DNA of 64,000 nucleotides from Filosporella fistucella (Eukaryota > Ascomycota > Leotiomycetes > Helotiales). The notes under the pieces were generated by a model, which ran no database searches, was not told where the DNA came from, and saw only the letters and a program-made list of their open reading frames with translations. The DNA is taken from assembly GCA_030077755.1 (NCBI GenBank), contig JAQJZZ010000014.1, forward strand, positions 310,001-374,000, written 5' to 3'. Positions 10,520-16,284 of the stretch are shown piece by piece; the first letter of the stretch is position 1, and each line of letters begins with the position of its first letter. The translations under genes were made by a program, and so were the position numbers.

Positions 10520-13500
10520 CTAGACGTCAAAATTATCCCATCCATATTCATTTTGCTCAGCTGAATCCTCTCGCTGATATATATGCTCATCCATACTCGC
10601 TTCATCAACAAAGGTGAAGCCTTTAAAATTGGCTTGGATACTTGGCGATAGCGGAGTGGAGTGCGAAATGCCGGCAGCCAACGCATCTGCTCTGGTTGTC
10701 AAAGCGGAAGAGAATTCAGGAGGGAAAGAACTTTCGGATATTTCGTGCTTGCTCAGATGATACGGCATGAATGGGGGAGTAATTCGCTTTCGCGCCAGAG
10801 CGTCCCAATCTGTAGCAGCAAACCAGGAATGACGCTTTAGATCTTCAGCACCATTGGCTGCCCCAAGGCGATGGCTTGGGTTGCGATTCAGTAGCCCTTT
10901 AACCAAATTCCGCCCTTCCTCGGAAAGAATACCTCGTGGGAATCTCACTTTCCCAAATGCTATATTTTTGATCATTTGTTGCGTGTCCTCAGCGTAGAAG
11001 GGACTCCAGCCGCAACACATCTCAAAAATCAAGACGCCGAGGCTCCAGAAGTCGACCAGATTCGTGCAGCTGTTTGCATCTATGATCGCTTCTGGCGCTA
11101 GGTACTCAATCACACCAGTTGAAGATCCATCCCCTCCAGTGTCGACCGGGGATGTGTGACCTTTAGAAAGGCCAAAAGAGCAAAGCTTGATATGACCAGT
11201 AGCATCGAGCAAAATGTTCTCAGGCTTGAGATCTTGGACAATTATGTCGTGGCTATGTAGATGCTGTAGCCCAAGAATAATTTCTGCAATATAGAATCTT
11301 GAGCGGTTCTCATGAAAACGTCCTTCTCTCTGCAGGTGCCAGAATAATTCTCCGCCATGCATGTAATCCGTTGCGATATATGCATATGTTGCTGTTTGGA
11401 AAGAGAATTTGGTATCCGCTATAAACGGCATGCCGAAAACAAGGGTGGTTAAATACCAGTCATCACCAGTTTTTCGACTCTCTTTCAGAACCTTGCCCAA
11501 ATCAGCCTTGGGCCATACTTTCACGGCGTACAGCTGAGCAGTATCTTTCTTTCTCATCTGATACACTTGTCCGTATTTTCCTTTACCGATAAGCCTCATT
11601 ATCTGGAAGTCCTCCGGCTTATAGTTGTACTCTTCTGTCTTCTGGAAGCTGATGCTTATAAGTAATTTGCCTGTGACATCTGAGCTGTCTCTGTCAACAT
11701 GGGAATGAAGAGAATACCATTGCTGTTCATGCTGAAGAGATTCTATCGGTCCCGGAATCATTTCGATCGACCCCAAGAGAGTCGCTTTTTTGTCAGAAAA
11801 GTCATATACTTGCAGATGTATGTCCGTATCGTTGCCAAAAACATCACTGTGTGCTGAGATCAGCCTTGAAATTCCAAGTAGCTTCATATTTTGCGAAGCA
11901 ACCTACAATTTGATTATGCAATTCCAGTTTGGGTTTACGATCCACTTGATTTCTGTTGGCTCTTTCTCATACGAGTCTGTTGAGTCTGTTGCACCTCTTC
12001 GGCGCATTTTCACGCCAGACGGAGTCGGTATTGGTTTTGCAAGATCGATATCTTCTCTCCGATTCATGGATTTAGGTTGCTTACTCCTGCTGGTATCGCC
12101 TTCGGATTCCTGAATTTCACCATCAAGTATCGGCCCTGGCGAAATGAATGTTGCCCCTTGAAATTGGCAAATGATGTGAGGCTCAGCGCTTGGGCGTAGC
12201 CCTTGACCCCGATGAATGGATACACATAGTCTGCCTCGGGGGTGAGGCATTTGATAATTTGAGGAATCTGGCTTTTTTGTACCGGAGATGACGCTTGTCG
12301 ACGATGCCATATTTTCCACTTCCATTCTCTTTAGCTCTGATTTTGACATCTCCAATGATAGCGCTAGCCTATCAGCCTCCTCAGCCTTACCTTGCTTTCG
12401 GTAGATGTGGCCCAGGCTCGTAATTGTCCCTTTGATATCATGCAGATCCAGGGCTTCCTTGCCATCCAGTACTTGCTTATATTCTGCTTCGGCTTCGTCG
12501 AGCTTACCAAGTTTGTAATGCACGTTTCCCAGATTTCTTAAAGTTCGTAGAGCATCGGGAGCTCGAGCTTTTCCCCGTTTCTTTTTGCCCGCCAGTGCCT
12601 GCTTCAATAACATTTCAGCCTTTTCATAATGGCGGTTCCTGTAGTACATGATTGCCAGATTGTCCATAGTACCCAGAGTATCCGGATGGTCAGGCCCCTT
12701 TTTCCTCTTGTTTCCTTCAAGTGCTCTTTCGAGAAGTTGTCTAGCCAAATCGTAGGAGGGACTGTTGAACTCGTTTGACTTCAATTTTAAAGAACTAGGG
12801 GTGACAGGACTAAGGCTCATGTCTAAGTTCTTTGAAGAAATCGACGAGGATTTATAGTAGAGATTGGCCAAGTTCTCCACAGTTCGCAATGTATCCGGGT
12901 GCTCCATTCCTAATACCCTTTCGTTCCCCTCTAAGGCACGCTGATATAGCCCCTCTGCTTGATTGTATTGCTCCTGATCGCTGTAGACATTGGCGAGGTT
13001 CTGCACCGCGCGTAAAGTATCTGGGTGAGTAGGCCCAAGTTTTTTCTCTTTGCTCACAAGCGACCGCGAGAACATACTCTCGGCCTCCGCATACTGTTTC
13101 TGAATTCGGAGTACGTTCGCTAGATTCTCTACTGTCCCCAAAGTATCCGGGTGTTCAGATCCCAATTCTGTCTCCTTCACCTCCAAAGCATGTTTGTAGA
13201 GTAGCTCGGCATCAACATATCGCCCCTTCTTCTGATATACGTTGGCAAGATTTTGCCCGATGCTTACCGTCTCCAGGTGATTTGATCCGAGACTCTCCTC
13301 CATTCCTCTCAGTGCCTGCTCAAATAAATCCTCGGCTTCATCATATCGGCCTTGGTCGCTGTAAACATTTGCGAGCTTCTGTATAGTCCGAAGAGTATCC
13401 ACTTGGCCCTGTGTTTGGGTTTGACTGTTTGAGATATCTTTTCTTCCTACCGTCGCGATTATGGCTGGTGTTAATTTTTCTTGCCTCCGGGCTAAAGCCC

Positions 13501-14023: not shown

Positions 14024-16284
14024 GTGACCATCAATTCGAAAGAGATCCATCCACTCAACCTCTTCCGTGTCGCAATAAGCCCGGAAGTATCTCTCAGAAA
14101 TCCGATTAGGGTCAAAAAACCCGGCGAGAGTTAGGAAATTGTTTTTCCGTTCAATCGTCTCTGAATCTCCACTGATGAGGTCGAAAGACATCTCCCATGT
14201 AGTGAACACACTTAGTGGGCCACTCTGATCATGATATTCCCAGTCGTCAGGAATATCTCGGAAGATGACATCTTTCCGCTTCTCGTAATGTATAATGAAG
14301 CCTTCTAAGGGCAATTTTCTTGCTCGTATATATGCTCCAGCTTGGTCAAGTGCCAGAGCTAGATGGCCAAGCAGATCAGCTATTACCAAGCCATTCTTCT
14401 CCTCAGTAGAGTCCCTAGGTTGCTGTCGTAGCAGAAGCTCAAGACTTTCAGACTTTGTCATGCTGGAGACCGAAATTCGATGGCCACCAAGGAGTTCTAA
14501 ACCAGTATGTCTGCTAGTGAATAGTATGGAACCACTTTTGCTTTCTGGTATATATTCCCTGATACTTCTCTTTTGGAAGGCCTTTGGGTTATCGTAATTG
14601 TCAAAGATCATGAGCCATCTCTGTCGCCAGCTGCGTAATGTATCATGGACAAGAGAAATTGTACTCTGAACGTCGTCTAGATCTACGAAGTCTTTGTGAA
14701 GTGCCTTGGCCATGGCATTGTAGCTCTGCTCAACAGCTGCCGGCGATGATGCGTCGATCCACAGAGTAGCTGAATAACCCAACTCTTCAGCCTCTCGGCA
14801 GCATTGTATCGCAAGTTGAGACTTTCCTGAGCCACCAATACCGCACAGCACGACCAAGTGTTGTGGCTGCTCCGACGTGTCATTATGGAGCCAGCGAGTC
14901 AACTCCTGTTGCACTTCTGACCTCGTGACAAAATTTCCAACGGTTCTCCGGTCCACATTGCTATAGAATGTCTGCTGCATATCTGAGCTTATCAGCAATT
15001 TATGGGTATCAATTTTGCTCAACCGAATTTGCGATACTTTCATAGATTAGCAGAAGATCAGAAAGTCACTCGCATCTCCAGAACATACAATATTCGTGCT
15101 CCACACGAGAGTCGACATCTCTGTCATCTTCTTGTACGACCCTCATCGAGTGTGCCGCCGTCAGTATTGGCTTGGATTGTGTGGTGGTCATATTTGTTAT
15201 CCATCGACGAAGCTCTCCGGCAACCGCAAGAAATCCAGGATCATCGTCTCTTTCAAATTTTGTCATATCTCTGTGATGGTTGTGTATTCCTATGCCAGTA
15301 TAGCCTGGGATCACGGCTGAATGGTGAGGTACAACCTAAGACGTAAGCCATGACTATTAATTAGAGTTCATGGAATGAATTCACTCACGATTCCGACACC
15401 AGACAAAGGCAATTCCTCATAAAAGCAGGTAATTTCGATGGGGGAAAGGCCGTGCTGTTCGCGTGACATAATCATGGTATGGAAATTGTCCTGGATGCGG
15501 GCGAGGACTTCAGACTCGGTTTCAAGAACCGCTACGATGTTAGCATTTGTCTGTTTGAGAAGCCCGATTGATTTCGCCAGCTTGCTTCCCCATTCAGCCA
15601 GGCCAGAGCCGCTGTGTGGGGTTCCAAGAAACGCGATTCCACGAGTGTACAGAAATACGTTTTGCAGGTGCTTTTCTGGTCTTTGTCGAGACATTACCAA
15701 TGCCTCCACATACGTTAAATAGAATTCGTGACGCGCTAGCAGAACAACTTACATCTTTACAGACAAGGCCACCTAAACTATGGCAAACAAAAACAATAGG
15801 GCGTGTATTCTGGTTCAATCAGCTTCTGTAGACTACTAGACTCTTCTGGGGCATTCACTGTATTATCTATATCCCTGTATGTGGCTATGGCTGTTATCAA
15901 ATTCATTGAGTGGTTTGCAACGCTATTCTTCGAGACCACCCCCCTCCAGTTTGCCACATAGGCATCGTACCCGAATGTGAATACGCGAGCATGAGGGATG
16001 GTGCGTGGAAGAAGAGTCTTGATCCACGGAAGAGGTGCATGTTTTGCTGTCCATGTCCTCTCTCGATCCCCAGTCAGACCGTGTATGAAAATGATGCTGC
16101 TTGAAATTAGCGACTATATACCGCAGAAGCTGATGATAAGCAATTCCGGACTATAAAGATAGTAGAGGACTACTTGCTCAACTACATCATTCTCTCCTTC
16201 ATGCATCAACTTGATACCTGAGGGGAAGGTCTTCACAGGCAATGAGGCTGGGTCCTTCTTTGACCAGGGCCATTGAGGCGGCAT
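14021..16284 (-). CDS. N-terminal half: SesB-like alpha/beta-hydrolase plus NB-ARC
   Basis: Translation from the ATG at 16284 gives 641 residues before the TAG. The first 300 or so form a serine-hydrolase-like module common at the N terminus of fungal NLRs: IIFIHGLTG, then the nucleophile elbow CHSLGG, FLGTPHSGSG, and the linker motif DDPGFLAVAGELRRW. The NB-ARC follows, with P-loop GIGGSGKS at about 369-376, a Walker B-like LMIFDNYD and an RNBS-like ILFTSRH. I chose the start at 16284 (MPPQWPWSKK) because it matches the usual short basic lead before the hydrolase. An in-frame ATG at 16347 would add 21 residues without similarity. The family is linked to heterokaryon incompatibility and non-self recognition, with the hydrolase as effector and the NB-ARC as oligomerisation switch. 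If the stop is real, this half would be made without its TPR sensor. Confidence 0.8.
16097..16177 (-). other. Probable GC-AG intron in the NLR locus
   Basis: The donor reads GCAAGT and the acceptor CAAGCAG. Using it restores VVDIIFIHGLTG with correct phase. The nearest GT donor, GTAGTC three bases on, gives a six-residue insertion before IIFIHGL. The choice rests on family resemblance. Confidence 0.6.

What the first reader, a model, noticed from the sequence alone, without database searches (positions are those of the whole stretch)
10520..16284. Fungal NLR fused to a Sch9-type C2-kinase module (possible integrated decoy)
Seen: one frame runs from an alpha/beta-hydrolase and NB-ARC through about ten TPRs into a C2 and an AGC kinase with turn and hydrophobic motifs. 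TPR and C2 are in the same exon, and an intron splits the C2. Known: fungal NLRs usually end in repeats (TPR, ankyrin, WD40), while Sch9 is the TORC1-controlled C2-AGC kinase. Plant NLRs carry integrated copies of host proteins that pathogens attack. Inference: the Sch9-like part is bait for an effector or antagonist that targets TORC1-Sch9 signalling, or it couples recognition to nutrient signalling. I know of no described fungal NLR with a Sch9 tail.
Basis: partly seen in the sequence, partly recalled or inferred. Interest (0 to 1): 0.92.

Follow-up and report, generated by a model that had tools for sequence, protein, structure and literature searches.

The report
Fungal immune receptor carrying dead kinase
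A fungal immune-type receptor gene carries at its end a catalytically broken copy of Sch9, a master growth kinase, and other fungal sequences show similar fusions, which suggests the copy is a bait for something that attacks growth control; the gene in this genome is itself cut by a stop codon.

Summary
The fusion is real. A seven-exon minus-strand model (16284-10520) encodes alpha/beta-hydrolase, NB-ARC, TPRs, C2 and an Sch9-type kinase. The TPR-C2 border lies inside one exon; the C2 intron has the same place and phase in the genome's own Sch9. This copy is therefore probably an interrupted allele. Elsewhere the frame is open: P0001 has NB-ARC-TPR-C2-kinase, and P0121 and P0125 run into the C2. 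The module also sits on PNP-NACHT receptors (P0016, P0022). All 5 kinases of this kind (one, P0240, is a lone exon) have a changed catalytic residue, against 0 of 23 Sch9 rows; the core of the hydrophobic motif, which TORC1 phosphorylates in yeast, is kept in 5 of 5. Best reading: a pseudokinase integrated domain that baits for, or reports on, the TORC1-Sch9 node. CHK2-like kinase decoys were already proposed for Sordariales NLRs in 2025; two full-text searches listed no Sch9 version. Function is untested.

The parts
16178..16284 (-). exon 1 of the gene model (start of hydrolase)
   Evidence: intron 1 has a GC donor (GCAAGT)
15859..16096 (-). exon 2
15753..15809 (-). exon 3 (contains CHSLGG, nucleophile-elbow-like; my reading)
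15389..15703 (-). exon 4
15089..15335 (-). exon 5 (end of hydrolase)
11907..15036 (-). exon 6: NB-ARC, in-frame TAG, TPRs, first half of C2
10520..11846 (-). exon 7: second half of C2, kinase, C-terminal motifs, stop
15189..16284 (-). SesB-like alpha/beta-hydrolase domain (with introns)
   Evidence: DUF676 1.8e-4; relatives with the same N-part
14396..14905 (-). NB-ARC domain
   Evidence: PF00931 1.1e-9
14021..14023 (-). in-frame TAG stop codon (codon 660 of 1806); Trp in the 8 relatives that score above 500 over the region
12326..13720 (-). tetratricopeptide repeats
   Evidence: PF13374 6.7e-79
11621..12235 (-). Sch9-type C2 domain, split by an intron
11847..11906 (-). phase-2 intron inside C2, same place and phase as in the genome's own Sch9
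10820..11605 (-). AGC kinase domain (pseudokinase by sequence)
   Evidence: PF00069 2.2e-53
11429..11515 (-). alpha-C region, 3 of 20 Sch9-invariant residues kept
11234..11236 (-). HRD Arg replaced by Gln (IVQDLKPEN)
11177..11179 (-). DFG Asp replaced by Ser (CSFGLS)
11108..11161 (-). shortened, diverged activation loop
10643..10660 (-). turn motif STPLSP, intact
10601..10627 (-). hydrophobic motif FKGFTFVDE, intact

Best explanation
The locus belongs to a family of fungal NLR-type receptors (SesB-like hydrolase, NB-ARC, TPR) that captured the C2-kinase part of an Sch9 gene at DNA level. The captured kinase lost catalysis and serves as a C-terminal sensor (integrated decoy): it keeps the C2, much of the kinase lobe and the TORC1/Pho85-type C-terminal motifs, so that an agent aimed at Sch9 or at its phosphorylation also meets the receptor, which would then oligomerise through NB-ARC and unleash the hydrolase. 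Shown by sequence: the fusion, its Sch9 origin, its presence in other assemblies, changed catalytic residues, kept C-terminal motifs, and the stop codon here. Inferred: the sensor role, the ligand and the output. In this genome the copy is most likely an interrupted allele, broken fairly late.
For: Same architecture in P0001 (82% identity over the aligned NLR part; 71% in the kinase exon) and, up to the C2 intron, in P0121 (69%) and P0125 (48%) (the P0125 C2 half is weakly similar). P0240, a lone kinase exon, joins window and P0001 with 100/100 support. The module also sits on a PNP-NACHT backbone in P0016 and P0022 (Pfam's C2 matched in P0016 only). At least one catalytic residue changed in 5 of 5 of these kinases, 0 of 23 Sch9 rows. 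Turn plus hydrophobic motif: 12 of 12 Sch9-invariant residues kept in window and P0001, 11 of 12 in P0240, against 3, 3 and 2 of 20 in the alpha-C region. Intron of the same place and phase in the own Sch9. Late break: 7.5-8.3 nonsense changes expected for 135 missense changes without selection, 1 seen, P 0.002-0.005.
Against: The window copy has a premature stop and has more unique changes than P0001 before and after it (135 against 50 summed), as expected if constraint is relaxed. No ligand or expression data. P0017, a fusion without NLR parts, keeps its catalytic residues. P0240's attachment to a receptor is inferred from its place in the tree. The number of origins is not firm: all five tails as one clade are not rejected (p 0.116). 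Tests of motif retention are weak (p 0.021, 0.040 and 0.112 in window, P0001 and P0240; 1 and 0.22 in P0016 and P0022) and 30 such tests were run. The structure predictions were uninformative.
Confidence: 0.55

Rival explanations
1. The tail is a built-in gauge of TORC1 activity. TORC1 phosphorylates its hydrophobic motif while growth signalling is normal; when TORC1 is inhibited (starvation, or a microbial TOR inhibitor such as rapamycin), loss of the mark releases the receptor. It guards a pathway state and needs no protein effector.
For: Catalytic residues are dispensable but the TORC1-site motif is the best kept part. In yeast Thr737 in that motif is a TORC1-dependent site (PMC5643326, abstract in the listing) and Ser726 is a Pho85 priming site (PMC10455444, passages). 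Rapamycin mimics the incompatibility reaction in Podospora (PMC5613156, passage).
Against: The N-terminal region that targets yeast Sch9 to the vacuole (1-183) is not part of the fusion. No phosphorylation data. The motif may serve other contacts.
Confidence: 0.2
2. The kinase tail is a decaying passenger: fused by accident in an ancestor, tolerated, and losing sequence; the window copy as a whole is a pseudogene.
For: Stop codon; 2.7-fold excess of unique changes over P0001; erosion of alpha-C and activation loop.
Against: P0001, P0121 and P0125 keep long open frames at 48-82% identity; the module occurs on two backbones; the core of the hydrophobic motif is intact in 5 of 5; fewer nonsense changes than neutral.
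Confidence: 0.13
3. The TAG is bypassed, for example by A-to-I editing of UAG to a Trp codon in fruiting bodies, as in Fusarium and Neurospora, so the full receptor is made in a stage-specific way.
For: The codon is UAG with G at +1 and A at +3, as preferred (PMC11156358); the best-aligned relatives have Trp; the centroid fold puts the A in a hairpin loop.
Against: The own Sch9 groups with Cadophora and Drepanopeziza, both Helotiales, Leotiomycetes; editing was not found in Botrytis apothecia (PMC11156358) nor yet in Leotiomycetes, and Sclerotinia Ame1 did not replace the Fusarium one (PMC11087585, passages). The minimum-energy fold differs and is not special (z -0.11). P0001, P0121 and P0125 do not share the stop.
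Confidence: 0.06
4. The tail is an active kinase effector, or the stop makes two working proteins (hydrolase-NB-ARC, and TPR-C2-kinase).
For: VAIK Lys kept in 5 of 5 and HRD Asp in 4 of 5; some pseudokinases bind ATP (recalled).
Against: DFG Asp changed in 3 of 5 including window and P0001; alpha-C Glu lost in 4 of 5, although the alpha-C alignment is uncertain in the window clade. P0001 is fused across the site. I did not look for a promoter between stop and TPR.
Confidence: 0.04

Closest known systems
Sordariales NLRs with a C-terminal PKinase domain resembling CHK2/PRD-4, proposed as integrated decoys (PMC12258605, passages)
   Same: Fungal NLR with a C-terminal copy of a conserved kinase of the same fungus, read as bait
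   Different: CHK2-type kinase; the two orthogroups named in a supplementary table title carry T-NACHT in their names. Here an Sch9-type C2-kinase module on NB-ARC-TPR (and PNP-NACHT). The terms Sch9, C2 domain, AGC and catalytic do not occur in its main text.
Plant NLR integrated decoys (kinase-type integrated domains)
   Same: Duplicate of a signalling protein fused to an NLR (listings; details recalled)
   Different: Fungal origin; no known effector
Sch9, the TORC1-regulated AGC kinase
   Same: C2, kinase fold by sequence, turn and hydrophobic motifs, C2 intron
   Different: No Sch9 N-terminus, catalytic residues changed, fused to an NLR
SesB-like NB-ARC-TPR fungal NLRs without tail (for example P0122, P0123, P0124, P0126)
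   Same: Backbone, 38-43% identity
   Different: They end in or just after TPRs (by reading)
P0017, Cudoniella acicularis protein with an unassigned N-part and an Sch9 module
   Same: Sch9 C2-kinase module at the C-terminus of another protein
   Different: No NLR domain matched; catalytic residues intact, though a stretch before the glycine-rich loop is missing in the deposited protein; N-part matched nothing in Pfam or PDB sequences

Membership tests
Fungal NLR (NOD-like receptor) | N-terminal effector domain, NB-ARC or NACHT, C-terminal repeats in that order | tested here: met
   (hydrolase 21.5 bits against a cut-off of 20.3)
Fungal NLR (NOD-like receptor) | one continuous reading frame making the receptor | tested here: not met
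   TAG at 14021-14023 in this copy; open across the site in P0001, P0121, P0125
Fungal NLR (NOD-like receptor) | triggers a defence or death response on activation | not testable with these tools
   needs an experiment
Sch9 kinase | common descent with Sch9 | tested here: met
Sch9 kinase | catalytic residues (VAIK Lys, alpha-C Glu, HRD Asp, DFG Asp) | tested here: not met
   DFG Asp replaced, alpha-C Glu not found; VAIK Lys and HRD Asp kept
Sch9 kinase | turn and hydrophobic motifs | tested here: met
NLR integrated decoy | extra domain homologous to a separate protein of the same organism | tested here: met
   own Sch9 at G000:C7:1566080-1567393
NLR integrated decoy | fusion retained in relatives | tested here: met
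   P0001, P0121, P0125 at 48-82% identity, from unnamed assemblies
NLR integrated decoy | original biochemical activity dispensable | tested here: met
   5 of 5 with a changed catalytic residue; sequence only, no assay
NLR integrated decoy | the domain is bound or modified by a pathogen factor | not testable with these tools
   no interaction data
A-to-I edited premature-stop gene | UAG edited in transcripts | not testable with these tools
   no RNA data; class-level evidence is against

The most novel reading that the evidence does not exclude
Fungi have repeatedly wired a dead copy of the TORC1 substrate Sch9 into immune-type receptors, so that the receptor reads TORC1 output through the phosphorylated hydrophobic motif and fires when a rival microbe's TOR inhibitor, or an effector, shuts growth signalling down: innate immunity by monitoring a nutrient-signalling node.
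Probability: 0.2. Interest if true: 0.9.

Novelty: new variant of a known kind. Interest (0 to 1): 0.7.

Why it matters
What most fungal NLRs detect is unknown (recalled; PMC5613156 passages say so for NWD2 and PNT1). A bait derived from a named signalling hub, seen on two receptor backbones and stripped of catalytic residues, points at the TORC1-Sch9 node as something that is attacked or monitored in fungi, and gives a testable ligand hypothesis. It also extends the integrated-decoy idea in fungi from the CHK2-like case to a second kinase.

Tried and rejected
Misassembly: rejected, because the same order occurs in the separate sequences P0001, P0121 and P0125. Retroposed Sch9: rejected, because the C2 intron is kept. 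An intron removing the TAG: 21 frame-keeping GT-AG stretches of 35-200 nt span it, none with a GT(A/G)NG donor such as 4 of the 6 modelled introns have, and P0001, P0121 and P0125 have residues on both sides of the site. Repeat-induced mutation: no clear signature (TA/AT 0.63 in the gene, 0.66 in the window; (CA+TG)/(AC+GT) 1.46 and 1.33). Other Sch9 fusions in this genome: none seen; among 84 matches only the window copy and the own Sch9 exceed 45% identity over more than 150 residues (a 31-residue stretch elsewhere has 55%; 95 of 102 candidates were scored). Structure: the AlphaFold model of the kinase exon had mean pLDDT 57.6, but the control, the intact own Sch9 with the same 32 further rows, had 49.2, so nothing can be concluded; no fold search was run. 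Number of origins: window clade with P0016 rejected (p 0.0092) and with P0017 (p 0.0189), all six fusions together rejected (p 0.0176); P0016 with P0022 (p 0.238), P0016 with P0017 (p 0.092), window clade with P0022 (p 0.248), P0022 with the Leotiomycete rows (p 0.182), window clade with the Leotiomycete rows (p 0.050) and all five NLR-type tails (p 0.116) not rejected; P0022 with the one Eurotiomycete row rejected (p 0.001). These groups were named after the tree was seen. Two or more origins are likely, not proven. RNA hairpin at the stop: inconclusive. P0017's N-part looked protease-like to my eye (TAAHAF, DFALI, GDCGSW); no library confirmed it.
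Full report
What is there. Read on the minus strand, the region 16284-10520 gives a seven-exon gene model of 1806 codons. It encodes a SesB-like alpha/beta-hydrolase (DUF676 1.8e-4 on the spliced letters), NB-ARC (1.1e-9), a long TPR array (6.7e-79) and a protein kinase (2.2e-53), with a C2 domain (3.2e-7) between TPR and kinase that aligns with Cadophora Sch9 at 32% identity over 196 residues. TPR and C2 are in one exon (15036-11907). 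The model is mine, built from splice signals and likeness to relatives; no transcript supports it.

The stop. Two stop-to-stop ORFs, 15046-14021 and 14020-11903, lie in the same frame and are separated only by a TAG at 14021-14023. Of the 120 listed relatives of residues 1-900 (245 hits in all), 8 align to the NB-ARC/winged-helix region with a score above 500, and all 8 have Trp at this place. The other 112 align less well: 76 have a gap or no coverage there and 36 have some other residue. P0001, P0121 and P0125 are among the 8. No plausible intron removes the stop. The window gene carries about 2.7 times as many unique changes as P0001 (135 against 50, summed over six segments; outgroup P0121, and own Sch9 for the kinase exon): 27:8 before the stop; 8:0, 41:16, 3:3, 8:3 and 48:20 after it. 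Yet the model has only one internal stop and no frameshift; 7.5-8.3 nonsense changes would be expected for so many missense changes without selection (P 0.002-0.005; the calculation takes all 135 as missense changes of the window lineage). I read this as a receptor kept open for most of its history and interrupted late. Editing of UAG is the striking alternative; it is known from Sordariomycetes and Pyronema, was not seen in Botrytis (PMC11156358, parts 1 and 2 of 3 read) and not yet in Leotiomycetes (PMC11087585, passages). The own Sch9 of this genome groups with Cadophora and Drepanopeziza, which are Helotiales, Leotiomycetes.

Origin of the tail. The genome (45.8 Mb, 19 contigs) holds its own Sch9 on another contig, 58% identical to the tail; the next best of the 84 matches has 41%. 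Window and own Sch9 share a phase-2 intron in the C2 (TT|GTAGG...AG|TGATGTT), and P0001 reads through an intron-like stretch at that spot. So a DNA segment of an Sch9 gene was joined to the TPR exon. The Sch9 N-terminus, which in yeast carries the vacuole-targeting region (residues 1-183, PMC10455444, passages), was left behind.

The family. A search with the C2-kinase part, which by the tool's length rule admits proteins of about 993-3160 residues, gave 468 hits, 120 listed; 3 of the 120 carry an NB-ARC or NACHT label: P0001, P0016 and P0022; the 348 unlisted hits were not seen. P0001 has NB-ARC-TPR-C2-kinase in one frame. P0121 and P0125 end inside the C2 at the intron, as exon-wise ORFs do (the P0125 C2 half is weakly similar), so their kinase exons were not seen with them. 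P0240 is a lone kinase exon that groups with window and P0001 at 100/100. P0016 (unnamed) and P0022 (Exophiala bonariae, Eurotiomycetes) carry the module behind a PNP-NACHT-DUF7104/ankyrin backbone. P0017 (Cudoniella acicularis, Helotiales) carries it on an unassigned N-part. In a tree of 29 kinase exons the window clade stands apart on a long stem, while P0016 and P0017 fall among Leotiomycete Sch9s. Tests reject window clade plus P0016 (p 0.0092) and plus P0017 (p 0.0189), but not plus P0022 (p 0.248), not P0016 with P0022 (p 0.238), and not all five receptor-type tails together (p 0.116). P0022 does not group with the one Eurotiomycete Sch9 in the tree (Trichophyton, p 0.001); transfer or shared ancestry with P0016 is possible, but no Chaetothyriales Sch9 was at hand.

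A dead kinase with a living tail. At the canonical sites: the DFG Asp is Ser in the window and His in P0001 and P0240; the HRD Asp is Ser in P0016; the alpha-C Glu is not found in window, P0001 and P0240 (the region is so changed that the alignment is uncertain) and is Gln in P0022, which also has DFS for DFG; the activation-loop Thr of TFCGT is changed in 4 of 5 (in the window the loop is shortened and the column uncertain). VAIK Lys is kept in 5 of 5. The core FKGFTF of the hydrophobic motif is kept in 5 of 5 (P0016 has VSE for VDE behind it) and STPLSP in 4 of 5. The 23 Sch9 rows (20 ascomycete, 2 basidiomycete, and P0242, an unnamed Sch9-like exon) are intact at the catalytic sites, and so is P0017, with Ser for the activation-loop Thr. 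Of 233 positions invariant in 20 ascomycete Sch9s the window keeps 166; by segment 3 of 20 around alpha-C, 2 of 10 in the activation loop, 39 of 47 from APE to alpha-G, and 12 of 12 in turn plus hydrophobic motif. P0016 and P0022 are less eroded (217 and 195 of 233; 16 and 12 of 20 around alpha-C), so the contrast is mainly a property of the window clade. In yeast the hydrophobic motif carries Thr737, and Ser726 before it is a Pho85 site; that Thr737 phosphorylation depends on TORC1 is in the abstract of PMC5643326 (listing).

How it most likely works. By analogy with the NLR model given in PMC12258605 (passage), the C-terminal sensor holds NB-ARC inactive; a ligand that engages the Sch9-like part releases it, NB-ARC oligomerises and the hydrolase is activated. 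Since catalytic residues are lost in different ways but the regulated C-terminus is kept, the useful property of the module is probably being recognised (by an antagonist, by TORC1 or by an upstream kinase), not phosphorylating substrates. Whether it is a bait for an effector or a gauge of TORC1 activity cannot be told from sequence. That rapamycin mimics the incompatibility reaction in Podospora (PMC5613156, passage) makes the second worth testing.

What is known. PKinase was listed among fungal NLR domains in 2014 (PMC4986451, passage). In Sordariales 12 NLRs have a PKinase, 9 of them C-terminal, similar to CHK2/PRD-4 and proposed as decoys (PMC12258605, passages). The words Sch9, C2 domain, AGC and catalytic do not occur in that main text. 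Searches: Sch9 with NLR and fungal as whole words gave 2 papers, both unrelated by their listings; a broader search gave 2,702 papers with at least two terms, of which the 12 listed have no mention of Sch9; fungal NLR with pseudokinase gave 5 papers, of which I saw passages of three, none on an Sch9 tail. Protease sensors fused to kinase-like domains are mentioned in PMC12881547 (passages). Only open-licence papers are held.

Limits. No nucleotide sequence of the relatives, no RNA, no structure of use, supplementary tables of the Sordariales study not seen, and the class of the host is inferred from one gene tree.

Noticed in passing
P0017 (Cudoniella acicularis G7Y89_g10122): An Sch9 module with intact catalytic residues is fused behind an unassigned N-part that has serine-protease-like strings (my reading); Pfam and PDB sequence searches gave nothing for that part.
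   Followed up: partly
P0022 (Exophiala bonariae): Its Sch9 tail does not group with the one Eurotiomycete Sch9 in the tree (AU p 0.001), although Exophiala is a Eurotiomycete; possible transfer of the receptor between fungal classes.
   Followed up: partly
16097-16177: The first intron of the gene model has a GC donor (GCAAGT) instead of GT.
   Followed up: no
33109-36213: A 1034-residue open frame rich in ankyrin repeats; no NB domain was matched in it at E 1e-5.
   Followed up: no
P0001, residues 16-379: The best stretch of a match to a bacterial NCBIfam model, FxSxx-COOH system TPR protein (337.8 bits, cut-off 300).
   Followed up: no
G000:C15:252141-252695 and 252808-253164 (L024, L025): NB-ARC relatives in this genome; the first has 1 TGA and 1 TAG inside the matched stretch, which may be introns or a further broken receptor.
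   Followed up: no
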